Of a stretch of 64,000 nt of DNA, positions 2,900 to 64,000 are shown one piece after another. The DNA lies in contig JACMPK010000229.1 of NCBI GenBank assembly GCA_014377535.1, forward strand, positions 27,692-91,691. The letters run 5' to 3'. The position numbers and the translations under genes are program-made. The DNA comes from Gemmatimonadaceae bacterium (GTDB lineage: Bacteria > Gemmatimonadota > Gemmatimonadetes > Gemmatimonadales > Gemmatimonadaceae). Position 1 is the stretch's first letter. Each line of letters starts with the position of its first letter. Below the pieces are notes generated by a model that saw only the letters and a list, made by a program, of their open reading frames with translations, was not told the origin of the DNA and did no database searches.

Positions 2900-3026
2900 A
2901 CGCGTGACGCGTGTCGCGGGCGCAGCGCACGTCGAGCGTCCGAGGCCATGAAGCCGTTAGAATGAGCAAGCTGCGCCACGATATCAGGGTCGTGCGAGGC
3001 GCTGTCCGCCCTCCCGTTCCCGGTGC

Positions 3027-5426: not shown

Positions 5427-5553
5427 CAGGCCGCGTCTGCGGCGTGGGCAAGCCGCGCACAGCAATTGCTTTTTATCACGGGGCGTGACCGGCCGACGCG
5501 GCCGATCATGCGCGACCATGCGGTGTGGCGCCCACCTGTGCCCTGTGAAGTCC

Positions 5554-7899
5554 ATGATGCCCTCTCGATTCCGACGCGCACGCGGCGTTGCGACCCGGCA
5601 GTTCCTGTCGGCAGTTGCTGCCGTCACTGCATTTTCTGCCTGCTCCGGCGGCGGTGGCCGGAAGACGACGATCACGCGCCTCACCGAACCGGTCATCGCG
5701 TCAGTGGCGCTGACCGTGGCCGGTAGTGGTTCCGGCAGCGGGCGCGTGACGTCCACACCGGCGGGCATCGAGTGCGCCGTGTCGAGCGGCGCGGCGAGTG
5801 GCATCTGCTCCGCGCGCTTCACACCCGGCACGCTCGTGACCCTCGAGACGCTGCCCGGTGCCACATCGGTGTTCCTCGCGTTCGGCGGTGACTGCGCGCT
5901 GTCATCATGCCAGACCACGATGGAAGCGCCGCGCACCGTGACGGCGACGTTCGTCCCGAACGTTCTCGCCGTGCTCGCGAATGCTGCGTCGATCGGTACT
6001 GGGCGGATCGTCAGCACACCAGCGGGCATCGACTGCATGCTGAACGGCACGGCACCCGGCACGGGATCATGCAGCGCAAGCTTTCCCGGGGGCACCGCAG
6101 TCTCGCTGGCGCAGGACGCGGCGGCCGGTGCGGTGTTTCAAGCGTGGGGCACCAACTGCATCGGCGATCCGTGCACGGTGACGATGAATGGGCAGCGTAC
6201 CGTGGACGCCACATTCCGCCTGCCGTTGGTGCCGTCACCGGCGCCGACGCCGCCTCCCGCCCCGACACCGCCACCGCCACCGCCGGCCGATGTCCCCGCG
6301 ATGCTGACCGTCAGTCCGTCGCCGACGTCGCGCGGCAGTGGCACCATCACGAGCCTCCCGGCCGGCATCAACTGCCTGGTCGCTGACGGCTCCACCTCCG
6401 GTGTGTGCAGCCTGGCGTTCCCGATGAATACTGCCGTCACACTCTCGCAGGTCGCGCGCGGCATCAGCATCCTGCATGGCTGGGGCGGTGACTGCATCGG
6501 CAATCCGTGCCAGATGTCACTCGCACGGCCGCGCGTCGCGGAAATCACATATCGTCTGCCGCCGCCGGGTATCGTGACGGTCAGCGGGGTCGGGACGGGC
6601 ACGGGCGCCGTGACGAGTTCCCCATCAGGTATTTCATGCACAGTTACCGCTGGTGTGACGAGCGGCATCTGCAGTGCCTCGTTCGAGGTGGGCGGCACGG
6701 TCACCTTGGTCGCAGGCGGCACCGCGAACGCCAGCTTTGATGGCTTCAGTGGTGCCTGCACTGGCGGCAGCTGTGCCGTTGCGGGCGCAAGCAGCATGAC
6801 CAGCGTGGTGACGGCGGCATTCACGGCCGCGCCGCAGCGCCTCACGGTCACCGCAGGTGCGGGATCGGCTGGCGGTGGCGTGATCACGAGCACGCCCATC
6901 GGCATCAGCTGCGTGCTCGTGGGATCAGCCACGAGTGGCACCTGCACGGCACTCTTCGCGGCAAACACGGTCGTCACGATGCAGCCAGTCAGCAGCGGCA
7001 ACGCGCGCTTCGCCAGCTGGACCGGCGACTGCGTGGCCGACCCGTGTCAGGTGGTGATGTCGCAGCCACGAACCGCACTCGCCAGCTTCCACACGCAGGG
7101 GCTCACGATCAGCGCGGGCGGCAGCGGACATGGTGTCGTCACCAGCGTGCCCACGGGCATCAGTTGCACCGTCACCGCTGGACTCGTCGGCGGCATCTGC
7201 GCGGCGACGTTCCCGCCGAACACCGTCGTCGTGCTCACGGCGACACCGTCAGGCCTTTCGTCATTCTCCGGCTATTCAGGCGCATGCGCCGGCAGTACGT
7301 GCACGACGAGCGTCCTGCCCGGCATCACCGGCGCGGTGACCGCACAGTTCACCGCTCCACCCACACTGACGCTCGGCGCCAGTGCGGGCTCGGAAGGCGG
7401 CGGCACGTTGACCAGCAGCCCGTCTGGCCTGAGCTGCACCCTGAGCTGGACGTCGGCCACGGGCAGCTGCTCCACGGCCTATGCGCTCGGCACGAACATC
7501 ACGGTCACGCAGACGCCCGCCGGCGGCAGTGTGTTCCTGAACTGGGCCGGTGCATGCACAGGCGGCGGCACTTGCCAGGTCACGATGTCGCAAGTGCGTG
7601 CGGTGCAGGCCCTCTACCGGCGGGCCGTGCCCGGCGCGGTGACCGTGGCGACGGGCAGCGGCACCGGGAACGGGTCCGTCTCCAGCTCACCGGGCGGCGT
7701 CGCCTGCTCCATCACCGGTGGCGTGCGGAGCGGGATCTGTCGCGCGATCTTTCCCGTCGGATCGACCGTGACGCTGCTCGCGATTCCAGCGAGCGGTCAC
7801 ACCTTCACCGGCTTCACGGGTTCATGCACCGGCATGACGTGCACGCTGACCGTGCCGGAGAATGGGGACATCACGGTCGCGGCGAACTTCACCCGGTAA
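5554..7899 (+). CDS. Cys-rich lipoprotein with eight InlB-B-like repeats
   Basis: About 781 aa from the ATG at 5554 (MMPSRFRR); the track start at 5485 adds a non-signal leader. The N-terminus has a lipoprotein signal with lipobox TAFSAC followed by SGGGG. The mature part consists of eight units of about 75-95 residues. Each starts with a P.GI.C-type segment (TPAGIEC, LPAGINC, SPSGISC) followed by SG.C..F, then a short ..W.G.C....C.V.M ending. That gives about four cysteines per unit. This resembles the divergent InlB B-repeat (Flg_new_2) fold. A proline linker (PTPPPAPTPPPPPP) separates units 2 and 3. A surface, structural or adhesive role is inferred; there is no catalytic domain. Confidence 0.8.
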   Translation: MMPSRFRRARGVATRQFLSAVAAVTAFSACSGGGGRKTTITRLTEPVIASVALTVAGSGSGSGRVTSTPAGIECAVSSGAASGICSARFTPGTLVTLETLPGATSVFLAFGGDCALSSCQTTMEAPRTVTATFVPNVLAVLANAASIGTGRIVSTPAGIDCMLNGTAPGTGSCSASFPGGTAVSLAQDAAAGAVFQAWGTNCIGDPCTVTMNGQRTVDATFRLPLVPSPAPTPPPAPTPPPPPPADVPAMLTVSPSPTSRGSGTITSLPAGINCLVADGSTSGVCSLAFPMNTAVTLSQVARGISILHGWGGDCIGNPCQMSLARPRVAEITYRLPPPGIVTVSGVGTGTGAVTSSPSGISCTVTAGVTSGICSASFEVGGTVTLVAGGTANASFDGFSGACTGGSCAVAGASSMTSVVTAAFTAAPQRLTVTAGAGSAGGGVITSTPIGISCVLVGSATSGTCTALFAANTVVTMQPVSSGNARFASWTGDCVADPCQVVMSQPRTALASFHTQGLTISAGGSGHGVVTSVPTGISCTVTAGLVGGICAATFPPNTVVVLTATPSGLSSFSGYSGACAGSTCTTSVLPGITGAVTAQFTAPPTLTLGASAGSEGGGTLTSSPSGLSCTLSWTSATGSCSTAYALGTNITVTQTPAGGSVFLNWAGACTGGGTCQVTMSQVRAVQALYRRAVPGAVTVATGSGTGNGSVSSSPGGVACSITGGVRSGICRAIFPVGSTVTLLAIPASGHTFTGFTGSCTGMTCTLTVPENGDITVAANFTR

Positions 7900-8107
7900 T
7901 ACAGTGACGATTTCTGCCGATGTGCCGGGCCGCGTGAACCAGCACCTCCACGTTCCGAAATCATGACGGCCGGGCAGGGCAGCCTGTGTAGCTTCATGCA
8001 TCGGTGAGCCGGCCACAGGTTCAACGTCCGCGCCCTGCCCTTCACGAGATGCTCGCGCCTGAGTCACCAGCAATCGACCGTCACACTGTTCTGCACCGGA
8101 GCCTGCA

Positions 8108-10072
8108 ATGAAGCCGAGCTGGCTGCGTGCCGGTCGTCGCGCGGCCCAGCTGCTTGCAATGCTCGTCGTGACGACGCTCGTGCTGCCGTACGCATTCGTG
8201 CCGGCCTACGTCGCACACGGTGCCACGCCGTTCAGCGGATCCACGCTGTTCAATCCATATGCGCACATCGGCACCCGGTGGCAGCGCGCGAACTTCCATG
8301 CGCATTCGCGGGCGTGGGGTGGACTCACCTCAGGGCATCAGTCGGTCGATGCCGTGCGTGCCGCATACACGGCGCGCGGCTACGACGTCGCGGGCGTCTC
8401 GAACTATCACCTGATCTCGCGCGCGATCGGCGACACGAATATTCTGCCCATCTACGAGCATGGGTTCAGCATCCGAAAGACCCACCAGCTGGTGATCGGT
8501 GCACGCGAGGTGACGGCCATCGATTTTCCGCTCTGGCAGACCACCCGGGCCAAGCAGTTCCTGCTGGCGCAGCTGCATGACACTGCCGCACTGACGACGG
8601 TCGTGCATCCGTACCTGCGCACCGGATACGGCATCGGGGAGCTGGCCTCACTATCCGGATACGACCTGCTGGAGGTGCGCAGCCACTGGAACGATGCGTC
8701 ACGCTGGTGGGATGCCGTGCTCACGGCCGGCAACCCTGTGTGGGCCATCGGCAACGACGACTCGCACGACGTGCGCAACCCGCGCGCGATTGGTGTCGTC
8801 TGGACGATGGTGAATGCCGCCACGTCGCGGGCACCGCAGGTGATCGATGCGCTGCGCCAGGGCGCGATGTATGTCGTCGCCGGATCCGACAGCGGATCGG
8901 CCGCCCGCCTGACCAGCGTGGCGCTGAGCGGTGACACGATCGTGACCACCTTTGATCGTCCCATGCGCAGCATCGAGGTGATCACCGATGGCGGCATCGT
9001 GCGGACGCAAGTCAGCGACCGCAGCACCGTGCGCTATGCGCTCACTCCCGACGACCACTACGCCCGCGTCGTGGCGACCGATGCCGGAGGCACACTGTAC
9101 CTGAATCCCGTGATCCGGTCCTCGGGCCGGCCCGCGCCGTGGGCCGTTCCCGTGCTGCGTCCGCTCGCAAGCCTGCTGTTCCGGCTGGGCGCCTTCGTGC
9201 TCTGGCTTGCCGCGATCACGATGCTGATGCGTGGCAGCGTCGCACGTCGTCGCTCGCAGCGACGCGCGCGCCTGCTGCAGCGGCGCACCACCCGCGCAGC
9301 CGCGCTGCTCTCGATGCTGTCGCTGTCACCGGGCAGCGCGACGGCACAGTCAAATCCACAGTCACAGTCACAGGCACAAGCACCGGCACCGGCACCGGCC
9401 TTGGCCCCGCACGCAGCGCTACCGTTCCGCATCGGCGACTACCACGAGTACGACCTGAAGTTCGGCGCGATCACCGTCGGCAGCGGCTCGCTGTCCGTCT
9501 CCGGGCCCGACACGTTGCGCGGCCGCGAAGTGTTGCGGCTGCGGTACGAAATCACCGGCGGCATTCCGTTCTTTCGCGTGCACGACGTGATGGAGAGCTG
9601 GTTCGACACCGCGGCCATGCACAGCCTCCGCTTCACGCAGGAGCTCAACGAAGGCCCGAAGCACTACCACCGGCACTTCGACTTCTACCCCGACGAGAAG
9701 ATCGTGCTGGAGCGCGGCAAGCCGCGTGCTGCGACCGTCGCATCACCGCTCGACGAGGCGTCGTTCATCTTCTACGTGCGCACACTGCGCATGGCCGTGG
9801 GCGAGACGCTGAGCTTCTCGCGCTATTTTCGCGTGGACGCGAATCCGGTGACGATCCAGGTGCTGCGACGCGAGACGATCACGGTGCCGGCCGGGACGTT
9901 CAACGCCGTCGTGGTGCAGCCCATCATCCGTACGTCAGGCATCTTTTCCAAAGGTGGACAGGCAGAGCTCTGGTTCACCGATGATGCAGTGCACACGCTC
10001 ATCCAGATGAAGGCAAAGCTGTCGTTCGGGTCGTTGAGTCTCTACCTGCGTCCGTCGCGCAACCGCCACTGA
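8108..10072 (+). CDS. PHP-type phosphoesterase / membrane / DUF3108 fusion protein
   Basis: 654 aa with an unusual three-part build. Residues about 1-40 form a signal anchor. Residues about 55-330 form a PHP (polymerase and histidinol phosphatase) type domain with metal-ligand-like segments NFHAHS, VHPYLRTG and GNDDSHDVRN. A transmembrane helix near residue 360 (LLFRLGAFVLWLAAITMLM) and an Arg-rich cytoplasmic-looking stretch follow. After a second signal-like hydrophobic segment and a Gln/Ala/Pro linker comes a DUF3108 domain (about 440-650: PFRIGDYHEYDLKFGAITVG, IIRTSGIFSKGGQAELWFTD). DUF3108 proteins are periplasmic and of unknown role. The ATG at 8108 follows a GGAG six bases upstream. 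No stop or frameshift separates the two halves in this sequence. Confidence 0.75.
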   Translation: MKPSWLRAGRRAAQLLAMLVVTTLVLPYAFVPAYVAHGATPFSGSTLFNPYAHIGTRWQRANFHAHSRAWGGLTSGHQSVDAVRAAYTARGYDVAGVSNYHLISRAIGDTNILPIYEHGFSIRKTHQLVIGAREVTAIDFPLWQTTRAKQFLLAQLHDTAALTTVVHPYLRTGYGIGELASLSGYDLLEVRSHWNDASRWWDAVLTAGNPVWAIGNDDSHDVRNPRAIGVVWTMVNAATSRAPQVIDALRQGAMYVVAGSDSGSAARLTSVALSGDTIVTTFDRPMRSIEVITDGGIVRTQVSDRSTVRYALTPDDHYARVVATDAGGTLYLNPVIRSSGRPAPWAVPVLRPLASLLFRLGAFVLWLAAITMLMRGSVARRRSQRRARLLQRRTTRAAALLSMLSLSPGSATAQSNPQSQSQAQAPAPAPALAPHAALPFRIGDYHEYDLKFGAITVGSGSLSVSGPDTLRGREVLRLRYEITGGIPFFRVHDVMESWFDTAAMHSLRFTQELNEGPKHYHRHFDFYPDEKIVLERGKPRAATVASPLDEASFIFYVRTLRMAVGETLSFSRYFRVDANPVTIQVLRRETITVPAGTFNAVVVQPIIRTSGIFSKGGQAELWFTDDAVHTLIQMKAKLSFGSLSLYLRPSRNRH

Positions 10073-10196
10073 TCGCGCAGTGCGGCGTGTGGGCGTCGCC
10101 GCGCACCGCGAACACAGTCGCCAAAGGCAGCGCGCGACGACTTCTGCCGGCGCTGCAGCACTCGCGGCGCGTCCGGTTGGCGAACCGATGCGCGAA

Positions 10197-11771
10197 TCAC
10201 CGCACAGCTGACGGCAGCGACCAGCCTCGTCGCAGCTGCCACGCCGTGAACACGGCAAGCGTCAACGCCGTATCGGCGCCACGCAGCACCGGCATCACGC
10301 CCACGTACTCCAGTCGCTCGAAGCGGCTGCGCTGCGGTGCCGCCAGCACCGTCGCGCTGTCGCCCGTCACGTTCGACGGGACCTTCAGCAGCAGCAGCCC
10401 GTCCCGCGCAACGACAGTGTCAGCATCGAACGCGAAGCGAAAGTGCCGCGCATCGTCATTCAGCACGAGCACCGGGCGCGCAGGGCCGAGCGCATAGCCG
10501 ATCTTGGCGGCGCGCATCCAGTCGGCGGTCGCGATGAAGCGCGCTGGCGCGAGCAGTCCGCGCGCGGTCAGCGAATCACGCAGCGAGCGGTACTCGAGCA
10601 GCTCAAAGGCGGGATCGCGCGTGTGCAATGACGGCACCACGTTTGCCACCCAGCCCGTCGCGGCGTGGCTCACCACGATGCCGAGCAGTGCGACGAACAT
10701 GACGACCGCACCCGTCATGCTCCGCCGTGCGGTCTGCGGCGTGCGCAGCTCCCATCGCGCAGTCGCGTCGCCGAGCAAGGGGAGCAGCAGGAAGAATCCT
10801 GGCGCCGGCCAGTGTGGCAATCCGGCTCGCCCACCAAGTGATGCGAGCGTGAACACGAGCACCGGCGCCGCGCCGAGGCAACAGCAGAACCAGGTCATCC
10901 GGCGTGTGGGGCCGGCGCGCAGTCCGCGCACCATCACGAACACGAGCGGAACCCAGAACCAGGGCAGCACGTAACCCGCCTGCCCTGCGAGGTTCTGCAG
11001 CAATGCCGTGACCGGCGATCCCGAACCAGCAGCACGACCCGCCTGAAACCGGAACGACACCCACTCATGCTGTGCGTTCCAGACGAACACCGGCACCACG
11101 CAGAGCAGTGCGATCAACACCGCCACATACGGCGGCACAGTGCCGAGTGACCGGCGCGAACCCCTGTCCGTCAGCACGAACACGGCAACGCCAAGACCAA
11201 GGAGCGCGGCGTGGTACTTGGAAAGTCCCGCCAGGCCGAGTGCGAGACCCAGAAGCAGCCAGGGGGTCCAAGTGGTGCGGTGCGTGGCCGCGGTGTGCAC
11301 GCCGTCAGCGTCAGTGCGCGACACGGACGCCGCATGCGAGAGCGCGAGCGCCGCGGCAACGCTTCCGCAGAGCAAGGGACCATCCGGCAGCACCCAGCTC
11401 CCGCTACTGAGGCTGAACACCGGGATCACCTGCGCCGCGAGCGTCGCCCAGAAACCTGCGCGCGCGCCGAAAAGTCGCGCCGTGAGCAGGTACAGCAACC
11501 CGGAGGTGAGCGCGAACAGCAACACGAAGGGCCAGCGGAGCGAAAACGGCGATTCGCCGCCCAGCCATGCAGCCGCATGCGCCATCCAGAAAACCGCGGG
11601 TGGATGGTCGAAATAGCTCAGCGAGAGCGTACGGGACACCACCGCGGCGTACGACTCGTCGATGCCGAGTGGCAGTGCGGCGGCGACCAGGAGTCGAAGC
11701 ATGGTCGCCGACGTGATGAGTCCGATGACGGGCTTCGGAATGATTGCGGGCATGAGGATCAACAATACCAT
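10197..11771 (-). CDS. GT39/ArnT-like membrane glycosyltransferase
   Basis: 524 aa polytopic membrane protein from the ATG at 11771; the longer track ORF adds an unlikely hydrophilic leader. The first periplasmic loop carries the acidic pair expected of the polyprenyl-phosphate-sugar transferase superfamily (LGIDESYAAV). It is followed by LSYFDHPPAVFWMAH, a hallmark of ArnT/PMT-like GT39 proteins. About ten hydrophobic segments fill the first 400 residues, with a soluble periplasmic C-terminal domain after them. The protein is predicted to transfer a sugar from a lipid carrier to lipid or protein on the outer face of the inner membrane. Donor and acceptor are unknown. It faces the upstream PHP-DUF3108 gene convergently. 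Confidence 0.8.
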   Translation of the reverse strand: MVLLILMPAIIPKPVIGLITSATMLRLLVAAALPLGIDESYAAVVSRTLSLSYFDHPPAVFWMAHAAAWLGGESPFSLRWPFVLLFALTSGLLYLLTARLFGARAGFWATLAAQVIPVFSLSSGSWVLPDGPLLCGSVAAALALSHAASVSRTDADGVHTAATHRTTWTPWLLLGLALGLAGLSKYHAALLGLGVAVFVLTDRGSRRSLGTVPPYVAVLIALLCVVPVFVWNAQHEWVSFRFQAGRAAGSGSPVTALLQNLAGQAGYVLPWFWVPLVFVMVRGLRAGPTRRMTWFCCCLGAAPVLVFTLASLGGRAGLPHWPAPGFFLLLPLLGDATARWELRTPQTARRSMTGAVVMFVALLGIVVSHAATGWVANVVPSLHTRDPAFELLEYRSLRDSLTARGLLAPARFIATADWMRAAKIGYALGPARPVLVLNDDARHFRFAFDADTVVARDGLLLLKVPSNVTGDSATVLAAPQRSRFERLEYVGVMPVLRGADTALTLAVFTAWQLRRGWSLPSAVR

Positions 11772-12047
11772 CGATGCACGACGGGTCGGTTGGCTGTAGC
11801 GCCAGCCGCAGTGCGCCGGATGCGCGGCACCACGTGTGTCGTCGGGATGGCGCATCACTTGCCTGTCGTGAACGGCATGGCCACGGCCCTCGACGTTGTG
11901 CAGCTCCCCTGTCATCGAGCGCAGGAGGAATCATTGGCCGCAGGACGATGCGATCCGCTGCTGATCATGCGACACCGACGCGCTCAGTGGCGTGCCTGAT
12001 CTACGTACCAGCCGAACTAACCCGTCACATTCATCCAGACAGGCCGC

Positions 12048-13025
12048 ATGACCAGAGAGACAGTCCCTGACAGCATCGCCATCATTGGCTGCGGACACGT
12101 GGGATCGACCAGCGCGTATGCGTTGATGCTGCGCGGCGTGGCGCGGGACCTCGTGCTGCTCGACGCCAATCATGCGGTAGCGGAGGCGGAGGCGATGGAT
12201 CTGCAGCATGCCGTGCCGATGGGCCGACCCGTCCGCATCCGCGCCGGCGACTACGGAGACGCCGCCAGGGCCGGCATCGTGATCATCGCTGCAGGAGTGG
12301 GTGGCAAGCCGGGTGAGTCGCGGCTCGAGTTGCTGGAGCGCAACATCGACGTCGTGCGCGAGTGCATGACGGCGCTCTCTGCCGAGGGCTTCATGGGGAT
12401 AGTGCTGATGGCGACGAATCCGGTGGATGCGCTCGCACAGGTGGCGTACGAGCAGTCCGGCTTTCCCGCCTCGCGTGTGATCGGGTCCGGCACGGTGCTC
12501 GATTCGGCCCGACTTCGTGCAATGCTCGGAGAAGACCTGGGCGTCGAGGCGCGGTCGATCCATGCCTATGTCATTGGCGAACATGGCGATTCGGAGATCA
12601 TTGCGTGGAGCTCGGCGTCCGTCGCGGGAGTCCCCCTGCTTCAGTACGCTCGCGACGGTCAGCTCGCCGATCCCGGCGCAGTGCTGCACCGTGTGCGACA
12701 AGCTGCGCCCGACATCATCCGGAGCAAGGGCTTCACGTCGTTCGCCATCGCGTCATGCGTGACGCGCATCTGCGAGGCAATCATCCGCGATGAGCACTCC
12801 GTGCTTCCGGTCTCCACGCTGCTGACAGGTCAGTACGGCATCAGCGGTGTGTATCTGAGCTTGCCGTGTGTGGTCGGGCGCGCCGGTGTCGAGCGCGTCA
12901 TCGACATTCCGCTGGACGTCGCAGAGCACGCGGGGCTGCACCAGTCCGCCGGCGTGCTGCAACGAGCGCTCCAGTCGGTTCGGCACAGCTCAACGGTTGT
13001 TCGTCCGCAGCAGAAAATGACATGA
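12048..13025 (+). CDS. L-lactate dehydrogenase-like NAD-dependent 2-hydroxyacid dehydrogenase
   Basis: 325 aa member of the LDH/MDH family. The NAD fold starts with IAIIGCGHVGSTSAYAL. Catalytic features are intact: the GSGTVLDSARLR helix (Asp/Arg pair) and the active-site His in YVIGEHGDSE. The coenzyme-loop Arg is in GKPGESR. The position that decides LDH (Gln) versus MDH (Arg) specificity, just before KPGESR, is Gly here, so the substrate may not be lactate. The length and the HAYVIGEHGDSE segment fit L-LDH better than MDH. The gene lies 10 bp upstream of a cation ATPase on the same strand and is probably co-transcribed with it. Confidence 0.85.
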   Translation: MTRETVPDSIAIIGCGHVGSTSAYALMLRGVARDLVLLDANHAVAEAEAMDLQHAVPMGRPVRIRAGDYGDAARAGIVIIAAGVGGKPGESRLELLERNIDVVRECMTALSAEGFMGIVLMATNPVDALAQVAYEQSGFPASRVIGSGTVLDSARLRAMLGEDLGVEARSIHAYVIGEHGDSEIIAWSSASVAGVPLLQYARDGQLADPGAVLHRVRQAAPDIIRSKGFTSFAIASCVTRICEAIIRDEHSVLPVSTLLTGQYGISGVYLSLPCVVGRAGVERVIDIPLDVAEHAGLHQSAGVLQRALQSVRHSSTVVRPQQKMT

Positions 13026-13035
13026 GAGCCAGCCG

Positions 13036-15909
13036 GTGCAGGATCCAGCACGACGGGTCTCGCAGGAGAAGCTTGTGAGTGCAGAGCGCGCGGTAGCACC
13101 AGCTGCGCAAGCGCCGTCCGCGACCGGTTCGACTGCGCCATACCAGCAGACATCTGAAGCGGTCATCGCATCGCTTGGCACCAACGCCGAACGTGGCCTT
13201 GCCGCACAAGAGGCGGGCGAGCGACTCACGCGCGATGGCGCAAATGAACTGCAGGCGGAAGCACCTGTACCGGCGTGGCGACGCTTCGCGCAGCAGTTCA
13301 GCGGAGTGCTCGTCATCCTGCTGCTGCTGGCCGCGGCGATCTCGGCAGGGTTATGGCTCGTGGAGCGCGAGTCTGCGTTACCGTACGAGGCGCTGGCGAT
13401 CATGTCGGTCGTGCTGCTCAACGCAATCATCGGGTATGTGCAGGAGTCACGAGCGGCGAGTGCCGTCGCGGCGCTGCGCAAGATGTCCGCAGCGCAGGCG
13501 AGCGTCATTCGCGATGGCGAGCGTCGTGGTATCCCCGCCTCCGAGCTCGTCTGCGGCGACATCGTCGTGCTCGAGGAAGGGGACACGATTCCGGCCGACG
13601 CCCGGCTCATTCAGTCGAGCTCACTGCAGACGGCGGAAGCAGCGTTGACCGGCGAAAGCTTCCCCGTCGTCAAGGACATTGGGCCCATTTCCGGCGACGC
13701 GGACCTCGGTGACCGCCTGAACATGGTGTACAGCGGTACGACGGTCACCTCCGGCCGCGGCAGCGCCGTGGTCACACAGACCGCCATGGCCACGGAGATG
13801 GGGCGCATTGCCGGTCTGCTGAAGAACACGTCCGAGGATCCGACCCCGCTGCAGCGGGAGCTCGATCGCGTCGGACGACTGCTCGGCATCGTCGTGGTCG
13901 TGATAGCGGTAATCATGATTGGCACCATCATTCTGCTGAGCGGTGTGCGCACGCTGTCGGGTATGTTCGACGTGCTCATCCTCGGCGTGGCAATGGCCGT
14001 CGCCGCTGTTCCCGAAGGGCTGCCTGCCGTCGTCACCGCCGTTCTCGCGCTCGGTGTGCAGCGCATGGCCACGCGCCGCGCCATCGTGCGGCACCTTGCC
14101 GCCGTCGAGACACTCGGATCAGCCACGGTCATCGCGTCCGACAAGACGGGGACACTCACGCGCAACGAAATGACCGTGCGACGCATCGTCACGGCGAGCG
14201 GCCGCGTGCATGTCGGCGGCACCGGGTACGAACCCGTTGGAACGCTTGAAACCGACGGTGGCGGACCAGTCGAGGGTGATGTGCAACGCGAGCTCCTGCG
14301 TGCCCTCACAGCGGCGGATCGCGTCAACAATGCAACCATCCGGGAGCAGGATGGGCGATGGCTGGTGCAGGGAGACCCGACTGAAGGGGCCCTCATCGTG
14401 GCAGCGCGCAAGGCGGGCCTCCAACCCGCGGATCTCGAGGCGCACTTTCCCCGAGTCGCCGAGATCCCGTTCTCTGCCGAGCGGAAGTTGATGACGACCG
14501 TGCATCGTGGCGATGGCGCTGCCAGCGAATTTTCCGCCTTCATCAAGGGCGCTCCGGACGTGCTGCTCGCGCTCTGCTCGCATGAACTCACCGGAGAATC
14601 GGTGGTCGCGCTGAGCGACGCACGTCGCACGGAAATCGGGCAGGCGAACGACGCACTCGCCGGCGAGGCATTGCGTACGATCGGCGTCGCCGCGCGCATG
14701 ATTCCAGCCAGTCCGTCTCCCGGCGAGTACCGCAGCGAGGATCTCGAGCACGACCTGACGTTCCTCGGCCTCATCGGCATGATCGATCCACCCCGCGATG
14801 AGGCCAAGGACGCCGTGGCGCGCGCGCGGGCTGCCGGTATCCGGCCGATCATGATCACTGGCGATCACCCGCGGACGGCAGCCGTCATCGCTCGCGAACT
14901 CGGTATCTCGCTCGACGGGCGCGTGCTGGCCGGTGCTGATCTCGCCGCGTTGTCCGATGAGACGCTGACCGAATCCGTCCGCGACATCTCCGTGTTTGCG
15001 CGCGTCAGCCCCGAGCACAAGCTCCGGATCGTCAAGGCGCTTCAGCGTCGAGGCGAGATCGTCGCAATGACTGGTGACGGTGTCAACGACGCACCGGCAC
15101 TCAAGGCAGCCGACATCGGAATCGCGATGGGCATTACCGGAACGGACGTCGTGAAGGAGGTCGCCGATGTCGTCCTGATGGATGACAACTTTGCCACCAT
15201 CGTGACGGCCGTCGAGGAAGGCCGCGCCATCTTTTCCAACATCCGCAAGTTTCTGCGTTTCCTGCTGTCATCGAATATCGGTGAAGTGATGACGATGTTC
15301 GTGGGCGTGCTGTTTGCCGATTTTCTGGGGCTGCGCACGGACGGCGACACCCTGGTACTTCCGCTGTTGGCAACACAACTCCTGTGGATCAACATCGTGA
15401 CCGACGGATTGCCGGCACTCGCGCTTGGTATCGACCCCGCTGAATCCGGCTTGATGTCTCGACCACCGCGCCCACGCGCCGAGGGCGTACTCACACGCCG
15501 GATGTGGGGTGGTATCGCGTTTGTGGGAGGCATCATGGCGGTCGGGACCCTGCTCGTGCTCGACGCCGGGCTGCCCGGCGGGTTCATCGACGGCTCGGGA
15601 ACGATGCGACATGCGCAGACGATGGCATTCACGACGTTGGTGCTGTTTCAGCTGTTCAACGTCTTCAATGCCCGCTCCGATGAGACGAGTGCGTTCCACC
15701 AACTGTTCCGCAACAAGTGGCTCTGGAGCGCCCTGACCGTATCAGTGTCGCTGCAGATCGCAGTGATCAATGTCCCATTTCTGCAGGTCGCCTTCTCGAC
15801 GCAGGCGCTGACCTTCGGAGACTGGATGCAGTGCACCGTTGTCGCGAGCTGTGTCTTGTGGTTTCGCGACGCGAGCAAGTACGTCGGTCGCCTGTTCAAT
15901 TCCAATTGA
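13036..15909 (+). CDS. P2-type cation-transporting ATPase (calcium-ATPase type)
   Basis: 957 aa P-type ATPase with GTG start at 13036; a downstream start within the hydrophilic N-terminus is possible. All signature motifs are present in order: the actuator loop ALTGESFPVV, the M4 ion-site motif PEGLPAVV, the phosphorylation site SDKTGTLTRNE, nucleotide-domain KGAPD, MITGDHPRTA, and the hinge GDGVNDAPALK. PEGLPA rather than a CPx motif places it in the P2 group (SERCA/PMCA-like, PacL family). Ca2+ export from the cytoplasm is the best guess; Mg2+ or Na+ cannot be excluded. Six C-terminal membrane helices are visible. It starts 10 bp after the LDH-like gene. Confidence 0.9.
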   Translation: MQDPARRVSQEKLVSAERAVAPAAQAPSATGSTAPYQQTSEAVIASLGTNAERGLAAQEAGERLTRDGANELQAEAPVPAWRRFAQQFSGVLVILLLLAAAISAGLWLVERESALPYEALAIMSVVLLNAIIGYVQESRAASAVAALRKMSAAQASVIRDGERRGIPASELVCGDIVVLEEGDTIPADARLIQSSSLQTAEAALTGESFPVVKDIGPISGDADLGDRLNMVYSGTTVTSGRGSAVVTQTAMATEMGRIAGLLKNTSEDPTPLQRELDRVGRLLGIVVVVIAVIMIGTIILLSGVRTLSGMFDVLILGVAMAVAAVPEGLPAVVTAVLALGVQRMATRRAIVRHLAAVETLGSATVIASDKTGTLTRNEMTVRRIVTASGRVHVGGTGYEPVGTLETDGGGPVEGDVQRELLRALTAADRVNNATIREQDGRWLVQGDPTEGALIVAARKAGLQPADLEAHFPRVAEIPFSAERKLMTTVHRGDGAASEFSAFIKGAPDVLLALCSHELTGESVVALSDARRTEIGQANDALAGEALRTIGVAARMIPASPSPGEYRSEDLEHDLTFLGLIGMIDPPRDEAKDAVARARAAGIRPIMITGDHPRTAAVIARELGISLDGRVLAGADLAALSDETLTESVRDISVFARVSPEHKLRIVKALQRRGEIVAMTGDGVNDAPALKAADIGIAMGITGTDVVKEVADVVLMDDNFATIVTAVEEGRAIFSNIRKFLRFLLSSNIGEVMTMFVGVLFADFLGLRTDGDTLVLPLLATQLLWINIVTDGLPALALGIDPAESGLMSRPPRPRAEGVLTRRMWGGIAFVGGIMAVGTLLVLDAGLPGGFIDGSGTMRHAQTMAFTTLVLFQLFNVFNARSDETSAFHQLFRNKWLWSALTVSVSLQIAVINVPFLQVAFSTQALTFGDWMQCTVVASCVLWFRDASKYVGRLFNSN

Positions 15910-57439: not shown

Positions 57440-57796
57440 TCATCCCTCGATGTCACCATTCGCATCGACCCAACCACGGAACCCGTCCGACATCGACGCC
57501 ACATTTGTATAACCCATCTGCATCAGCGATTCGGCCGCCAGTGCCGACCGATTCCCGCTGGCGCAGTACAGCACCACGGGCACCTCGCGCGCCACGGCCT
57601 GATCAATCTTGCTCTCCAGCGTGCCGCGCGACATGTGCACGGCACCGGCCGCATGCCCAAGGTTCCACTCGCGATCCTCACGCACGTCGATCAGCACGAC
57701 CGACGGGTCTGACGCACGCATCGCAAGGGTCTGGGCCGGTGTCACTTCCTTGATGCGCGACTTGGCGTCGGCGATGAGTTCTGCAGCACTCTTCAT
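57440..57796 (-). CDS. Single-domain rhodanese-like protein
   Basis: 118 aa. Rhodanese fold with VVLIDVREDREWNLGHAAGA and the active-site loop LYCASGNRSALAAESL, where Cys is the persulfide carrier. It moves sulfane sulfur between small thiols and proteins; the physiological acceptor is not evident. It precedes the Nudix gene by 31 bp on the same strand, probably one transcript. Confidence 0.88.
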   Translation of the reverse strand: MKSAAELIADAKSRIKEVTPAQTLAMRASDPSVVLIDVREDREWNLGHAAGAVHMSRGTLESKIDQAVAREVPVVLYCASGNRSALAAESLMQMGYTNVASMSDGFRGWVDANGDIEG

Positions 57797-57901: not shown

Positions 57902-58834
57902 TCACTGCGCATTCACCGCACCCTCCGCGGTCCACAACGCACACGCATCGACATCGAGCGTCGCCGACGCGCCGAGCGGGATTGTCCACTGGTCTGCAAT
58001 ATGGCCGATCGGCAGGTTGCCAAGACAGGGCACACCGAGCCGCTGCGCCAGCTCGTCGATCAACTCGTCCACGCCCGGTGCATCGACATTCTCATCGACG
58101 GGCACCAGCGTGAACTGACCGACAGCCAGCCCGACACACCCGCGCAACGCGCCGGACTGCTCGAGCTGCCGCAGCATGCGATCCACACGATATGCCGGCT
58201 CATGCAGATCCTCCAGCACCACGATCGCACCACGCGCCGACATGGCATCAGGCGTTCCGCACAGCGCAGCGAGCAGCGACAGGTTCCCGCCAACCAGCCG
58301 ACCGGCCACGCGCCCGCCACGCACGGCCCGCGCCTCAGGCCACACGCCACATGGCTCACCACCCTGCGTTACCGCGGCACGCAGGGAATCACGACTCATC
58401 GAGGGCAATGCTGCCCGCGCAGTATGCGCATGAAAGGTCACGATTCGGGCACGTGCCGCAATCGCACAGTGCAGCACCGTGACATCCGAATACCCGATCA
58501 CGACCTTGGGCCGCAACGCGAACGACTCCAGCGACAAGCACGACACGATCCGCGTCAGACCGTACCCGCCACGCACACACCACACGGCATCGATGGTGTG
58601 ATCGTCCAGCGCCCACTGCAGATCGGTAATGCGCTGCTCATCACTCCCGGCCAGGTAGCCCTGTCGGGCAAGGACGCTCGCGCCACGAAGTGGCTCCCAT
58701 CCCATGCCGCGCACATGCAGCTCGGCGCGCACGACATCGGCCTCGCCCACCAACGGCCCCGACGCGCACACGAGCGCAACACGCGCCCCAGCCCCCAACA
58801 CTGCCGGCCATCGCACTTTCGATGATGTCTGCAT
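57902..58834 (-). CDS. ldcA: S66-family LD-carboxypeptidase
   Basis: 310 aa from the ATG at 58834 (MQTSSKVRW). Segments VALVCASGPLVGEADVVRAE, DAVWCVRGGYGLTRI, the nucleophile region VVIGYSDVTVLH, and late GQFTLVPVDENVDAPGV with LGNLPIGHIADQWTIPLG follow the S66 order. The enzyme trims the terminal D-Ala from muropeptide tetrapeptides in the cytoplasm during wall recycling. It is divergent from the methyltransferase gene with only 45 bp between them. Confidence 0.85.
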   Translation of the reverse strand: MQTSSKVRWPAVLGAGARVALVCASGPLVGEADVVRAELHVRGMGWEPLRGASVLARQGYLAGSDEQRITDLQWALDDHTIDAVWCVRGGYGLTRIVSCLSLESFALRPKVVIGYSDVTVLHCAIAARARIVTFHAHTARAALPSMSRDSLRAAVTQGGEPCGVWPEARAVRGGRVAGRLVGGNLSLLAALCGTPDAMSARGAIVVLEDLHEPAYRVDRMLRQLEQSGALRGCVGLAVGQFTLVPVDENVDAPGVDELIDELAQRLGVPCLGNLPIGHIADQWTIPLGASATLDVDACALWTAEGAVNAQ

Positions 58835-58879: not shown

Positions 58880-61800
58880 ATGCTCACCACGCGCGCCGCA
58901 CACACGCTCCTCGCCAACGCGACCTCCGCAGCCGGCCTCCTCGCGCTGGCCCGTGCACTGGGCTTCGACTCGTCTCCGCACACGCTCACCCGACGCACCA
59001 TCCACTCGCTGGGCATCACGGCCGATTCAACACTCGCGACGCGCGCCACCCGCGCCACCCGCGTCACCCGCGGCGACGACGCGGCGATCCTGTTGGTCGA
59101 ACAGCTGCAGCCTGACGACTGGCGCGCCACACTCCACCGCCTCGCCACGCACCTGGATCGGCTCACGGACCCGCGACGCTGGCTGGTCCTGTTGCAATGT
59201 GCGAGCAACGGCCCACTAGTGCTGGCCTGTTGGCTGAGCTCCACGCGCGGCCCACGACTCGCCGTGCTCACGACCTCCCCGACCCACCCGCTCGATTCAG
59301 ATGCACAGACGATCGCCGCACTTTCGGCAGCCTGGCATTGCGACCCGACACTGACCTGCCTGCGCTGGCACGACCTGCTGGGCCGACACGCGATCGGCCG
59401 CCGGTTCTTCCGGGCACTGGACGAGCATGTCACCGACATCGCCGAAAGCTGGCCGGCACGCGTCGAGCACGACGACCGACGCACGCTCGCCCTGATCCAC
59501 GTGGCACGACTGCTCTTCCTCAAGTTCCTGGAAACGAAAGGGTGGCTCGACGACGACCGCAACTTTCTGGCACGACACGCCGAAGACAGGCTCGCCACGG
59601 GCGGCCGACTCTGGCACCGACTGGTCGCACCCCTGACCTTCGGCACCCTCAACACACCACGCCGACACCGCGCACCCGCAGCACGCGCCTTCGGCAACGT
59701 GCCGTTCCTCAACGGCGGACTCTTCGCCTGCTCGCCGGCGGAACGACGCGCACGCCAGCCCGCCATCCACGACGAACAGCTGACGCCACTGCTGCTGAAT
59801 ACGCTGGCGCGCTACCGCTTCACAGCGCGCGAAGATGCATCGTCATGGTCCGAAGCCGCCATTGACCCCGATCTCCTGGGCCGCACATTTGAAGCGCTCA
59901 TGGACACGAACGAACGTCGCGGCTCCGGCACGTTCTACACGCCGGCAGCACTGGTCACCTCGCTGGTCGACGACGCACTGACACATGCGATCGACGCCAA
60001 CCACGACGCACTCGGCAACGCACTCGGCAACGCACTGGCGGGACGACTCGTGGCACCGCGCGACGCCGCGGCAATCCTCGACCGACTCACCACCTTCCGC
60101 GTCGTCGACCCGGCCTGCGGCTCCGGAGGACTCCTCGTCGCCACCCTCGAACGTCTGGCGGCACTCCGCCAGCAACTCGGCGATCCACGCCCGCCCGCCA
60201 CGATTCGACGCGAAATCCTCACGACATCCATCTTCGGCGTCGACATCGCACCGATGGCCGTCTGGCTCTGCGAACTCAGGCTCTGGCTCTCCATCGTCAT
60301 CGACGACGACACGACCGACGCGCGACAGATCACGCCGCTCCCGAACCTGGACCACCACATCCACATCGGCGATGCCCTCGGCCATGACGCATTCGATGAC
60401 CAACCACTCGCCCGGTCGGCACGCCTGGCCACACTCCGCCAGTACTACGCCACCAGCACAGGAGCGAAGAAGAAAACGGCCGCGACACGCATCGATGCAC
60501 TGACACGCGACAACGCACGCAAACTGACACTGCGCACGATATCCGCACTCCACAACGAACGTACGGATTTGCTCCGATCTGCACGCGAACGATCGCTCTT
60601 CGGCACCCGCACAGGACTCTCCGCCACCCAACGACGACGCCTCGCCTCCGTGCGCGCGCTGCTCGCGCAATCCCGACGCCGACTGCGACGAGTGGATGAT
60701 GGAGGCGCCGTCGACTTCGAGTTCCGCACGCACTTCACCGACGCCGCCGCACACGGTGGCTTCGACCTGGTCATCGGTAACCCACCCTGGGTCCGCTCAC
60801 ACCACCTTGACGCCACGACACGCGCCAACCTCCGCACACGATTCGCCACAGTCACACGACACGCCTCCGGCACTCGCGCCTTCGGTGTCCAAACGGATAT
60901 CGCCATTCCGTTCACCCAACGCGGCCTGGAACTGACGCGACCCAACGGCATCATGGCCTTCCTGCTCCCGGCCAAACTCTGGCGCTCCATCTCGGCTGGC
61001 GCCCTGCGACACCACCTGCTCACGCACGCCACACCACTCCGACTGCGCGATCACTCGCTCGACGCTGCCGGATTCTCCGCCGCCGTCTACCCGTCGGCCA
61101 TCGTCGTGCGACGCGCACCACCACCCGTCGCCGACGCAAATGCACGCGCACACGCAAAGGCGCGCTCGAACGCCGCACCCGTGGAATGCCACGTGACCGA
61201 CGCCAGCGGCACACCACACCACTTCATCATCGCCTCACACGCGCTGCCGGCCTCCACCGAGATCGGTGCGCCGTGGCGCATCATCCCGGACGACGTCCGC
61301 GCTGCAGCCGACACCATCTCACACGCCGGCAGCCGTTGGATGGACTCGATCCTGCCCTCACCCTCCCTGGGCATCAAGACAGGCTGCAACGAGGCATTCC
61401 TGCTGCCGGACTCGGAAGTCCCGGACGCGCTCCGCACGTGGACGCGACCAGTGATGCGCGGCGATCACGTTCGCCCCTGGCACACGCCCGACAGCACGAC
61501 ACGCATCGTCGTGCCGCACGACAAGGCCGGCCGCACCCTCACACGACTGCCGCCACCACTCGCGTCACACTTCGCACCACACGAACGCGCACTCCTCGCA
61601 CGCACCGACCTCCGACCACGTGAACCATGGTGGGCGCTCTTCCGCACCGAACTGCTCGCCACGACCGGCTGGCGCGTGGTCTGGGCCGACATCGGCCGCA
61701 CCCTCCGCGCCACAGTGCTCGCTCCACACACAACCACCGTGCCACTCAACACCTGCTACGGCGTGCGACTGCATGACCCGATCGACGCACACACGCTCGC

Positions 61801-62107
61801 CGCCCTGCTCAACGCACCAACGACGACGGCATGGCTCTCGCTGATCGCCGAACCCGCCCGCGGGGGCTACCACCGCTTCATGGGTTGGACAGTCCTCGCA
61901 CTCCCGATGCCGGACTGGAACCGCACCCGCACACTCCTCGCACCACTCACTGCACGCGCACGACGCGGTGAATCGGTGAGCGTCGATACGCTCCACCACG
62001 CAACGCTCGAAGCATACGGTATCCGCCACGACGACGTCGCAACGCTCCTCGCATGGACGAGCGCAGCACTGCGCAGCCACCGCACCCACCAATCACAAGC
62101 ATCATGA
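58880..62107 (+). CDS. Eco57I/TaqI-like N6-adenine DNA methyltransferase (putative defence)
   Basis: 1075 aa. N-terminal helical region with ARLLFLKFLETKGWLDDDRN, a segment usual in Eco57I-like and PglX/DrmM-like enzymes. Methyltransferase motif I is FRVVDPACGSGGLLVATLER (about residue 410) and motif IV is DLVIGNPPWVRSHHL (about 633). A roughly 200-residue insert lies between them. The C-terminal TaqI-like specificity region shows GIKTGCNEAFLLPDSEV and VMRGDHVRPW. It should methylate adenine in a specific DNA sequence. No clear endonuclease motif is seen by eye. The composition is rich in Thr, His, Arg and Ala, with a C-rich coding strand, unlike neighbours. A SNF2 helicase follows after 10 bp. 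Confidence 0.85.
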   Translation: MLTTRAAHTLLANATSAAGLLALARALGFDSSPHTLTRRTIHSLGITADSTLATRATRATRVTRGDDAAILLVEQLQPDDWRATLHRLATHLDRLTDPRRWLVLLQCASNGPLVLACWLSSTRGPRLAVLTTSPTHPLDSDAQTIAALSAAWHCDPTLTCLRWHDLLGRHAIGRRFFRALDEHVTDIAESWPARVEHDDRRTLALIHVARLLFLKFLETKGWLDDDRNFLARHAEDRLATGGRLWHRLVAPLTFGTLNTPRRHRAPAARAFGNVPFLNGGLFACSPAERRARQPAIHDEQLTPLLLNTLARYRFTAREDASSWSEAAIDPDLLGRTFEALMDTNERRGSGTFYTPAALVTSLVDDALTHAIDANHDALGNALGNALAGRLVAPRDAAAILDRLTTFRVVDPACGSGGLLVATLERLAALRQQLGDPRPPATIRREILTTSIFGVDIAPMAVWLCELRLWLSIVIDDDTTDARQITPLPNLDHHIHIGDALGHDAFDDQPLARSARLATLRQYYATSTGAKKKTAATRIDALTRDNARKLTLRTISALHNERTDLLRSARERSLFGTRTGLSATQRRRLASVRALLAQSRRRLRRVDDGGAVDFEFRTHFTDAAAHGGFDLVIGNPPWVRSHHLDATTRANLRTRFATVTRHASGTRAFGVQTDIAIPFTQRGLELTRPNGIMAFLLPAKLWRSISAGALRHHLLTHATPLRLRDHSLDAAGFSAAVYPSAIVVRRAPPPVADANARAHAKARSNAAPVECHVTDASGTPHHFIIASHALPASTEIGAPWRIIPDDVRAAADTISHAGSRWMDSILPSPSLGIKTGCNEAFLLPDSEVPDALRTWTRPVMRGDHVRPWHTPDSTTRIVVPHDKAGRTLTRLPPPLASHFAPHERALLARTDLRPREPWWALFRTELLATTGWRVVWADIGRTLRATVLAPHTTTVPLNTCYGVRLHDPIDAHTLAALLNAPTTTAWLSLIAEPARGGYHRFMGWTVLALPMPDWNRTRTLLAPLTARARRGESVSVDTLHHATLEAYGIRHDDVATLLAWTSAALRSHRTHQSQAS

Positions 62108-62117
62108 CACACGAGGC

Positions 62118-64000
62118 ATGACACCGATGCAGCATGAAACAAGGGGCGCCGACACGACACGCGTGCCGGACGGTCACGATGATGACGGCATCGACCCGTT
62201 GGTGCGACACCTCGCCCGCTGCGCCCTCCGCACCCGCGCACTGCTCCACGACACGCCATCACCACAACTCGGCAACATCACGTTGCTGCCGCATCAGGTG
62301 ACGGCCGTACGCTGGCTCATGCCACGTATCCGTCGCTACGGCGGCGCACTGCTCGCCGACCCGCCCGGACTGGGAAAGACGTATGTCGCCCTCGCCGTCG
62401 CGAGAGAATTCGCCTGTCGACCACTCGTGATCGCGCCCGCAGCACTCCGCAGCCGCTGGACCGACGCCGCACGCACGACCGGCATACCCCTCGACTTCGT
62501 CAGCACCGAACGCCTCAGCGCACCCGCCACACCGCACCTCGCCGCACACCCCCTCGTGATCATCGACGAGGCACATCACCTCCGGACTCCCTCGACCAGA
62601 CGACACCACCGGACGACGAAACTCTGCGCCGACGCGAAAGTGCTGCTGCTGAGCGCGACACCGATACACAACTCGACCGACGACCTGCTGCACGTCACAC
62701 GGCTGTTCCACACTCCGGCAACACACGCCTCCACATCCTCGGCACGCCACCTGCTCACCCTCCGCCGCACAGTGGCCGACATCCACGCGGCACGACTGTC
62801 TGATGCGACCGCACTCGTGATTCCCGTCGTGCGACACCGCGCGCCGATCACGATGCCACCACGCGTGACGTCGCTGCCGGCAGACATCATGGCTCTCCCG
62901 CCCCTCCGCACAAACGAACGCGATGGGCACAGCCTGCTACAACTGGGCCTTCTGCACGCGCTTCGCTCGAGCGACGCCGCCGCGCGCGCACACATCCGGC
63001 ACCGAATAGCCGCCACGATCGGCATGGAGCAGGCCGCACGCGCGCACATCCAGCCAACGCGCGACGTTCGACGCGCCTGGCGATCGAGCGAGGCCGATAT
63101 CCAGCTTGCGATGCCCGAATTGCTCGGACGAACCTGCAGCACCGTTCCGCCACACCTTGCGGCAGATGCGGCGACCCAGCGCATTGCACTCGAGGCGCTG
63201 CTTCCGGCGCTCACTGGCATCGATGACCGCCGACGCTGCACCGCGCTCCGGCGACTCGCGCGATGGTCCACGAGACCTGTCGTCGCGTTCACGCAGTTCA
63301 GCGCGACGGCCGAACAATTCTTCCGCGAACTGCGCACACAGCCGGGCATCGCACTGCTCACCGGCAACGAAGCCAGGCTCGTCTCTGGAACCATCAGCCG
63401 CGCCGACGTGCTGCAACGCCTGCTGGACCCCCACCACCGGCACCGCCACGACGTCGTGCGACTGCTCATCACGACCGACGTGCTGAGCGAAGGCCTCTCG
63501 CTGTCCGGCGTCGCGACGATCGTTCACCTCGACCTGCCCTGGACCGCCGCACGCCTCGATCAGCGCATCGGCCGCGCAGCACGCATCGGCGCACCCGTGA
63601 CGGAGGTGCAGACCGTCTCGCTCCCCGCTCCGCTGCCCGCAGCGGCATACGCGGCCATCACCACACTTCTCGCGCGAAAACGACGCTTCATGGGCGCACT
63701 GGATCCACATGACGACATGGGCGCGCAGATCATTGAACTGCTCGTCGCACTCGCACGACACGTCAGCGCTCAGACACCCGCGCGAAAAGGATGGGTCACC
63801 ATGCGGTCCCGCGACATTGCACACCACCGCTGCCTCGCCATCGTGCGCCTGCGCGCTCGCACCATGCTGCTCGCCTCCGATGAACGCGGCCTGCGAGCAC
63901 CATGCATCGCGGACTGGCAGGCACTCGCGGCAGCGCAGGCGACCGAGCCGCAAGCAGGCCAGATCGCGGCGCTCAGGCGACGCCTGACGGCATGGCAGGC
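62118..64000 (+). CDS. SNF2-type helicase, partial at the window edge (missing from ORF track)
   Basis: I translated this frame by hand from the ATG at 62118; it stays open for 627 codons to the edge, so the end is outside. Helicase motifs run in order: LLPHQVTAVRWL (Q/I region), Walker A LADPPGLGKTYVALA, PLVIAPAALRSRW, Walker B VIIDEAHHLRTPS, motif III LLLSATPIHNSTDDLL, and in the second lobe LITTDVLSEGLSL and motif VI LDQRIGRAARIG. This is the SNF2/RapA-like group. With the adjacent adenine methyltransferase it recalls class 1 DISARM (DrmD with DrmMI). DrmA/B/C would then lie beyond 64000. Inference only. Confidence 0.85.
   Translation, partial: MTPMQHETRGADTTRVPDGHDDDGIDPLVRHLARCALRTRALLHDTPSPQLGNITLLPHQVTAVRWLMPRIRRYGGALLADPPGLGKTYVALAVAREFACRPLVIAPAALRSRWTDAARTTGIPLDFVSTERLSAPATPHLAAHPLVIIDEAHHLRTPSTRRHHRTTKLCADAKVLLLSATPIHNSTDDLLHVTRLFHTPATHASTSSARHLLTLRRTVADIHAARLSDATALVIPVVRHRAPITMPPRVTSLPADIMALPPLRTNERDGHSLLQLGLLHALRSSDAAARAHIRHRIAATIGMEQAARAHIQPTRDVRRAWRSSEADIQLAMPELLGRTCSTVPPHLAADAATQRIALEALLPALTGIDDRRRCTALRRLARWSTRPVVAFTQFSATAEQFFRELRTQPGIALLTGNEARLVSGTISRADVLQRLLDPHHRHRHDVVRLLITTDVLSEGLSLSGVATIVHLDLPWTAARLDQRIGRAARIGAPVTEVQTVSLPAPLPAAAYAAITTLLARKRRFMGALDPHDDMGAQIIELLVALARHVSAQTPARKGWVTMRSRDIAHHRCLAIVRLRARTMLLASDERGLRAPCIADWQALAAAQATEPQAGQIAALRRRLTAWQ

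What the first reader, a model, noticed from the sequence alone, without database searches (positions are those of the whole stretch)
58880..64000. Candidate phage-defence locus: large adenine methyltransferase plus SNF2 helicase
A 1075-codon Eco57I/TaqI-like methyltransferase and a SNF2-type helicase are 10 bp apart on the same strand, with no obvious nuclease so far. Known: class 1 DISARM pairs an adenine methylase (DrmMI) with a SNF2 helicase (DrmD), followed by DrmA, DrmB and a PLD nuclease DrmC. The helicase frame was missing from the ORF track because it runs off the edge.
Basis: partly seen in the sequence, partly recalled or inferred. Interest (0 to 1): 0.65.

Follow-up and report, generated by a model that had tools for sequence, protein, structure and literature searches.

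The report
Nuclease-free methylase and helicase core pair
Two neighbouring genes, a DNA-adenine methylase and a SNF2-type DNA motor, look like the nuclease-free remains of an ancient restriction system; instead of coming and going like phage-defence genes, they have become a single-copy, inherited fixture of nearly every genome of their bacterial order (Gemmatimonadales).

Summary
A 1075-aa Eco57I/MmeI-type N6-adenine MTase (58880-62107) lies 10 bp upstream of a SNF2 helicase ORF that runs off the window. The assembly contig ends at base 64000, so relatives had to supply the rest. It is not DISARM: both proteins score far below every curated DrmD, DpdE and PglX cut-off and DrmMI is not matched, DrmB is absent from the assembly, and in relatives the pair is followed by housekeeping genes. 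The pair is near-universal and single-copy in order Gemmatimonadales (146/163 genomes, 55/57 genera), sits in one conserved chromosomal neighbourhood, and its MTase distances track rpoB (Mantel r=0.91). In other phyla the same MTase family adjoins a PLD-nuclease-SNF2 fusion with an intact HxK motif, i.e. a complete restriction system. In sister families the PLD domain persists without HxK; in Gemmatimonadales it is gone. Best explanation: a restriction-modification system that lost its nuclease stepwise and became a fixed DNA-methylation (plus motor) module. Elimination against the published Gemmatirosa methylome suggests, but does not prove, that this MTase makes RGATCY m6A there, without the helicase. 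Function (epigenetic housekeeping versus nuclease-free defence) is untested.

The parts
58880..62107 (+). N6-adenine DNA methyltransferase, 1075 aa, Eco57I/MmeI-like architecture
   Evidence: AlphaFold2 model pLDDT 82, nearest folds CamA, MmeI, BrxX, BseCI
58880..59479 (+). N-terminal domain (aa 1-200), where MmeI carries its nuclease; fast-evolving, no invariant D/ExK
   Evidence: only G28, L167, R175 invariant besides M1; mean identity 0.36 in the family
59501..59725 (+). helical spacer (aa 208-282), weak MmeI_hel similarity
   Evidence: PF20465 E=0.013 in the window protein, 2.3e-4 in the Gemmatirosa orthologue
59867..61114 (+). catalytic MTase domain (aa 330-745)
   Evidence: PF02384, PF07669
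60107..60130 (+). motif I, DPACGSGG (SAM binding)
   Evidence: invariant or nearly so in A1, 20 sequences
60779..60790 (+). motif IV, NPPW (adenine-N6 catalysis)
   Evidence: invariant in A1
61157..62065 (+). target-recognition region (aa 760-1062); encoded as a separate ORF in genus g17
   Evidence: split at residue ~755 in G018/G148/G149; conservation scales with the catalytic domain
62118..64000 (+). SNF2-type SF2 helicase/translocase, truncated by the contig end (627 of an expected ~700-750 aa)
   Evidence: no PLD or other nuclease domain in full-length relatives
62355..62381 (+). Walker A (ADPPGLGKT)
   Evidence: G84, G86, K87 invariant
62565..62576 (+). DEAH box (Walker B)
   Evidence: invariant
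63561..63584 (+). motif VI (QRIGRAAR)
   Evidence: Q482, R483, G485, R486, R489 invariant
57902..58834 (-). LD-carboxypeptidase (peptidase S66), divergent conserved neighbour; start codon approximate
   Evidence: PF02016/PF17676; conserved upstream in most Gemmatimonadaceae loci and in L099/L100 of family f2
57440..57796 (-). rhodanese-domain protein, conserved neighbour
   Evidence: PF00581
56824..57504 (-). neighbour read as a NUDIX hydrolase from its sequence (not Pfam-tested here); conserved position
   Evidence: conserved in most relatives

Best explanation
The pair is the nuclease-free descendant of an ATP-dependent restriction-modification system (Eco57I-class MTase plus PLD-SNF2 helicase). 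In the ancestor of this part of Gemmatimonadota the PLD nuclease decayed; in Gemmatimonadales it was lost completely while MTase and motor stayed. The module was then fixed in one chromosomal locus and inherited vertically. Most likely working mode: the MTase methylates N6-adenine at a lineage-stable motif as a core epigenetic mark (possibly RGATCY), and the SNF2 translocase acts with it on DNA, for example by moving along DNA or displacing bound proteins to help site access. SHOWN: family, motifs, pairing, near-universality, vertical inheritance, absence of the nuclease domain, degenerate PLD in sister family f8. INFERRED: the direction of change (loss rather than gain), active methylation, the motif, and the helicase's role.
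For: Distribution: MTase profile hits 146/163 order genomes and 55/57 genera, nearly always one copy, plus six f9 genomes and nine f8 genomes, with only sporadic weak hits in f6, f7 and f10. Pairing: adjacent, same strand, usually within about 100 bp or overlapping. Vertical inheritance: the tree sorts into families with the minimum 5 changes; Mantel r=0.907 against rpoB (21 genomes) and 0.805 within the family (14), 0/5000 permutations each. Fixed locus: NUDIX-rhodanese-LdcA on one side, HAD/sigma/DUF4097/Bax1-I/pterin dehydratase on the other. Ancestry: relatives in many other phyla sit next to PLD-SNF2 fusions with invariant HxK and GSSN. Decay: f8 has a separate ~177-aa gene (fused in f6 L114) aligning with that PLD domain at 97% probability, E 7e-11, lacking HxK; no PLD-profile hit beside the pair in Gemmatimonadales. 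Target-domain identity scales with catalytic identity here (0.47 at 0.55) but stays low in the PLD systems (0.39 at 0.54). Methylome: Gemmatirosa has three active m6A motifs (PMC3974934); genome G017, with the same four replicon sizes, has only an HsdM with HsdS, an MmeI and this MTase in five m6A Pfam families, leaving RGATCY for this one. Fold: best PDB matches are CamA, a known orphan MTase.
Against: No experiment shows methylation or helicase function. RGATCY rests on elimination; MT-A70 and other MTase families were not searched in G017. RGATCY is not unusual in abundance (O/E 0.89). Loss from all six sampled Gemmatimonadaceae genomes of 2.4 Mb or less shows it is dispensable. dN/dS 0.25-0.42 is higher than I would expect of strict housekeeping genes. 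A nuclease in trans cannot be excluded. The f9 N-terminal domain is not significantly similar to PLD. The PLD comparison set is small and mixed.
Confidence: 0.6

Rival explanations
1. A working anti-phage system that needs no dedicated nuclease: the MTase marks self DNA and the SNF2 translocase blocks or strips unmarked incoming DNA, as proposed for BREX and DISARM.
For: Both enzymes keep all catalytic motifs; the nearest named families are BREX, DISARM and Dpd components; DrmC nuclease is dispensable in DISARM (PMC9142583); the helicase evolves faster than the MTase.
Against: Near-universal, single-copy, vertical, fixed locus without defence neighbours, unlike the patchy distribution of R-M genes (PMC6471742); no BrxC, PglZ, DrmA or DrmB seen at the loci; Gemmatirosa keeps the MTase but has lost the helicase.
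Confidence: 0.25
2. Restriction still occurs, with a nuclease supplied by the MTase N-terminal domain (as in type IIG/MmeI) or by an unlinked host PLD enzyme.
For: Best PADLOC label is type IIG REase-MTase, 1.8e-39; overall MmeI-like fold order; the N-terminal domain occupies the place of the MmeI nuclease.
Against: No invariant acidic/ExK residues in aa 1-200 across the 20 aligned sequences, the least conserved part; MmeI_N not detected.
Confidence: 0.1
3. Class 1 DISARM fragment, with DrmA, DrmB and DrmC lost at the contig end.
For: MTase plus SNF2 helicase arrangement; weak DrmMI and DrmD similarity.
Against: DrmD 72.9 bits vs 610 cut-off, DrmMI not matched in NCBIfam; DrmB family absent from the assembly; relatives show housekeeping genes after the helicase.
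Confidence: 0.02

Closest known systems
PLD-SNF2 helicase + Eco57I MTase loci in other phyla (PADLOC C3a139 'HKD+Snf2' next to 'REase_MTase_IIG')
   Same: Homologous MTase and SNF2 helicase, adjacent genes
   Different: They carry an HxK PLD nuclease fused to the helicase, usually in the order helicase-MTase, and several have an extra opposite-strand target-domain gene; Gemmatimonadales has no nuclease and the order MTase-helicase
CamA of Clostridioides difficile
   Same: Core-genome orphan m6A MTase; best fold match
   Different: 577 aa, no helicase partner, recognises CAAAAA (motif recalled from memory)
MmeI (type IIL)
   Same: Domain order N-domain, helical spacer, MTase, TRD; fold match 1e-18
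   Different: No recognisable nuclease motif; has a separate SNF2 partner
CglI / NgoAVII R-M
   Same: Known pairing of a PLD nuclease with an SF2 ATPase and a MTase (PMC4267653)
   Different: C5 MTase, DEAD-Z1 helicase, B3 recognition domain; nuclease present
Class 1 DISARM
   Same: MTase plus SNF2 helicase
   Different: Core DrmA and DrmB absent; DrmD cut-off not reached
BREX (PglX with BrxHI/BrxHII)
   Same: Large m6A MTase; Swi2/Snf2-type helicase in type 3
   Different: PglX 55 bits vs 400 cut-off; no BrxC or PglZ at the loci

Membership tests
Class 1 DISARM | DrmA and DrmB (DUF1998/MZB) core | tested here: not met
   PF09369 absent from the own assembly (90.6% complete), positive in 8 of 14 control genomes; neither core gene seen next to the pair in relatives
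Class 1 DISARM | DrmD helicase over the curated cut-off | tested here: not met
   72.9 bits vs 610 (NF038317), 64.0 vs 950 (NF038318)
Class 1 DISARM | DrmMI methylase | tested here: not met
   PADLOC DrmMI 2.9e-22 but type IIG 1.8e-39; no DrmMI among NCBIfam matches
BREX | PglX over the curated cut-off, with BrxC and PglZ | tested here: not met
   PglX 55 bits vs 400; no BrxC or PglZ in the neighbour Pfam scans; genome-wide presence not searched
Dpd (DpdE helicase) | DpdE over the curated cut-off | tested here: not met
   98 bits vs 500
PLD-SNF2 + Eco57I MTase restriction family | homologous MTase and SNF2 helicase, adjacent | tested here: met
PLD-SNF2 + Eco57I MTase restriction family | PLD nuclease with HxK | tested here: not met
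   no PLD-profile hit at Gemmatimonadales loci; degenerate without HxK in f8 and L114
Type IIG/IIL R-M (MmeI-like) | N-terminal PD-(D/E)xK nuclease | tested here: not met
   MmeI_N not detected; no invariant catalytic residues in aa 1-200
Core-genome orphan MTase (CamA/Dam/CcrM-like) | near-universal in the clade, vertically inherited, no cognate nuclease gene | tested here: met
Core-genome orphan MTase (CamA/Dam/CcrM-like) | active genome methylation with a regulatory effect | not testable with these tools
   only indirect elimination against the Gemmatirosa methylome

The most novel reading that the evidence does not exclude
A restriction system was turned into a lineage-wide epigenetic machine that kept its SNF2 motor after losing its nuclease: a two-component methylase-translocase that writes a core, Dam-like m6A mark (RGATCY) in Gemmatimonadota.
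Probability: 0.35. Interest if true: 0.78.

Novelty: new variant of a known kind. Interest (0 to 1): 0.6.

Why it matters
Restriction systems are usually patchy and mobile; orphan methylases are known descendants of them, but I know of no lineage-wide case in which the helicase motor survived while the nuclease decayed. The graded series (active PLD in other phyla, dead PLD in sister families, no PLD in Gemmatimonadales) would make the conversion of a defence system into a housekeeping one directly testable. It also warns that defence-finder hits on MTase plus SNF2 pairs can be core genes.

Tried and rejected
Reading to the right of 64000: impossible, the contig ends there. DISARM, BREX and Dpd membership: rejected by curated cut-offs. 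First rpoB Mantel test gave r about 0 because the longest-ORF rule picked wrong frames; repeated with rpoB identified by its signature. Profile comparison of the f9 N-terminal domain with active PLD: not significant, so f9 is not counted as shown. Motif abundance of RGATCY and ATGCAC: uninformative. Plasmid and phage searches: no close relatives. CP007130 is not held in the plasmid collection. Helicase model has low overall confidence (pLDDT 69) and was used only to look for an extra domain. Literature searches found no description of this pair in Gemmatimonadota.

Full report
WHAT IS THERE. The ORF at 58880-62107 (+) encodes 1075 aa; 10 bp after its stop an ORF starts at 62118 and is still open at the window end. 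Pfam gives Eco57I, N6_Mtase and MmeI_Mtase for the first, SNF2-rel_dom and Helicase_C for the second.

NOT DISARM. PADLOC's best match for the MTase is type IIG (1.8e-39), DrmMI only 2.9e-22; the helicase matches DpdE, DrmD and BrxHI about equally, i.e. generic SNF2 similarity. The curated NCBIfam cut-offs are missed by far (DrmD 72.9 vs 610, DpdE 98 vs 500, PglX 55 vs 400). DUF1998/MZB is absent from the assembly. In relatives the pair is followed by a HAD phosphatase or an ECF sigma factor, DUF4097, Bax1-I and pterin-4a dehydratase.

A CORE GENE PAIR. The helicase has a match in 59 of 60 related genomes, though the weaker matches are other helicases. The MTase profile hits 146 of 163 genomes of the order (55 of 57 genera), almost always once; apparent second hits are mostly contig breaks or frameshifts. 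Six of the Gemmatimonadaceae genomes without it are 1.8-2.4 Mb; no genome of that family at or below 2.4 Mb in the sample has it. In the phylum, strong hits extend to families f8 and f9 of the same class, but only weak sporadic ones occur in f6, f7 and f10, L114 of f6 excepted. The two genes are adjacent and co-oriented, usually overlapping or within about 100 bp. The neighbourhood is conserved across genera, partly even in family f2. The MTase tree sorts into families with the fewest possible changes, and its distances correlate with rpoB (r=0.907, 21 genomes; r=0.805 within the family, 14 genomes; 0 of 5000 permutations). Family f1 is Gemmatimonadaceae: G002's 24,491-base contig matches record JACMLX010000027.1.

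WHERE IT CAME FROM. Distant relatives of the MTase in Poribacteria, Spirochaetes, Bacteroidota, Clostridia, Proteobacteria and Chloroflexi lie beside a SNF2 helicase of about 1100 aa whose first ~250 aa are a PLD nuclease with invariant HxK and GSSN in 13 of 13 aligned sequences. That is a restriction system in the broad style of CglI/NgoAVII, where PLD nuclease and SF2 ATPase cooperate (PMC4267653). In family f8 of Gemmatimonadota a separate gene of ~177 aa sits between MTase and helicase; in L114 (f6) the same domain is fused to the helicase. It aligns with the active PLD domain over its whole length (97% probability, E 7e-11) but lacks HxK, and this holds in all nine f8/f6 loci found. In f9 an N-terminal domain of ~170 aa is fused to the helicase; its relation to PLD is suggestive only. 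In Gemmatimonadales the helicase core starts within a few tens of residues of the ORF start in most loci and no PLD-like ORF lies next to the pair. The simplest reading is stepwise loss; the tree is unrooted in the strict sense, so gain of a PLD domain elsewhere is not formally excluded.

HOW IT MAY WORK. The MTase keeps the SAM motif DPACGSG and NPPW in all genera sampled, the helicase all SF2 motifs, and both are under purifying selection in the genus (dN/dS 0.25-0.42). The MTase model (pLDDT 82) is closest to CamA, then MmeI, BrxX and BseCI. The target-recognition region evolves in step with the catalytic domain, whereas in the PLD systems it stays at about 0.39 identity at similar or higher catalytic identity (the high-identity bins hold few pairs). 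This fits a stable recognition sequence. In genus g17 the target region is a separate ORF.

A TEST FROM A PUBLISHED METHYLOME. Genome G017 has contigs of 20,952, 5,311,527, 1,106,233 and 1,040,503 bases, the replicon sizes of Gemmatirosa kalamazoonensis KBS708 (PMC3974934). That strain has three active m6A motifs: RGATCY, ATGCAC and CCAGN7TCA. Five m6A-MTase Pfam families find three genes in G017: an HsdM with HsdS (fits CCAGN7TCA), a complete MmeI (fits the asymmetric ATGCAC, as MmeI-family enzymes recognise asymmetric sites; from general knowledge), and this MTase. By elimination this MTase makes RGATCY, a palindrome with a GATC core, at >99% of sites. In G017 the helicase is missing and the sigma-factor gene follows directly, so the methylase would act alone there. 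Families not searched, such as MT-A70, leave a gap.

JUDGEMENT. Shown: identity, motifs, pairing, near-universality, vertical inheritance, fixed locus, absence of the nuclease, dead PLD in f8. Inferred: loss as the direction, active methylation, the RGATCY motif, cooperation of motor and methylase, and a housekeeping rather than defensive role. A nuclease-free defence role remains the main rival (about 0.25).

Noticed in passing
L169 (G014:C3:28000-44000), 1961-13500: A ~12 kb insert separates a C-terminally truncated MTase from the helicase. It holds a Cas1 (Pfam 2.3e-42, L169 4299-6194 -) and a family-B DNA polymerase-like ORF (DNA_pol_B_2 E=0.0018, below the cut-off; 8039-11116 +): a possible bacterial casposon-like element.
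   Followed up: partly
L088 (G018) 10825-14258; also G148, G149: In genus g17 the MTase is two ORFs overlapping by 4 bp, split at residue ~755, the boundary of catalytic and target-recognition domains, like separate M and S subunits.
   Followed up: partly
L041 13083-14048 (-), L044 7714-8532 (-), L045, L048, L049, L055, L057: In PLD-type relatives an opposite-strand ORF just downstream of the MTase matches only its target-recognition part: a likely invertible, phase-variable specificity cassette.
   Followed up: no
L116 (G017:C2:5075000-5094999): Gemmatirosa-like genome keeps the MTase at the conserved locus but has lost the helicase; the sigma-factor gene follows directly.
   Followed up: yes
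G000 and G001 whole genomes: In the window's own assembly and in G001 this MTase is the only Eco57I/N6_Mtase-family gene detected.
   Followed up: partly
L115 (G212:C185) 4958-8110: A Gemmatimonadota genome of family f6 carries a helicase with an HxK-bearing PLD domain, so intact PLD-helicase systems also occur patchily in the phylum.
   Followed up: no
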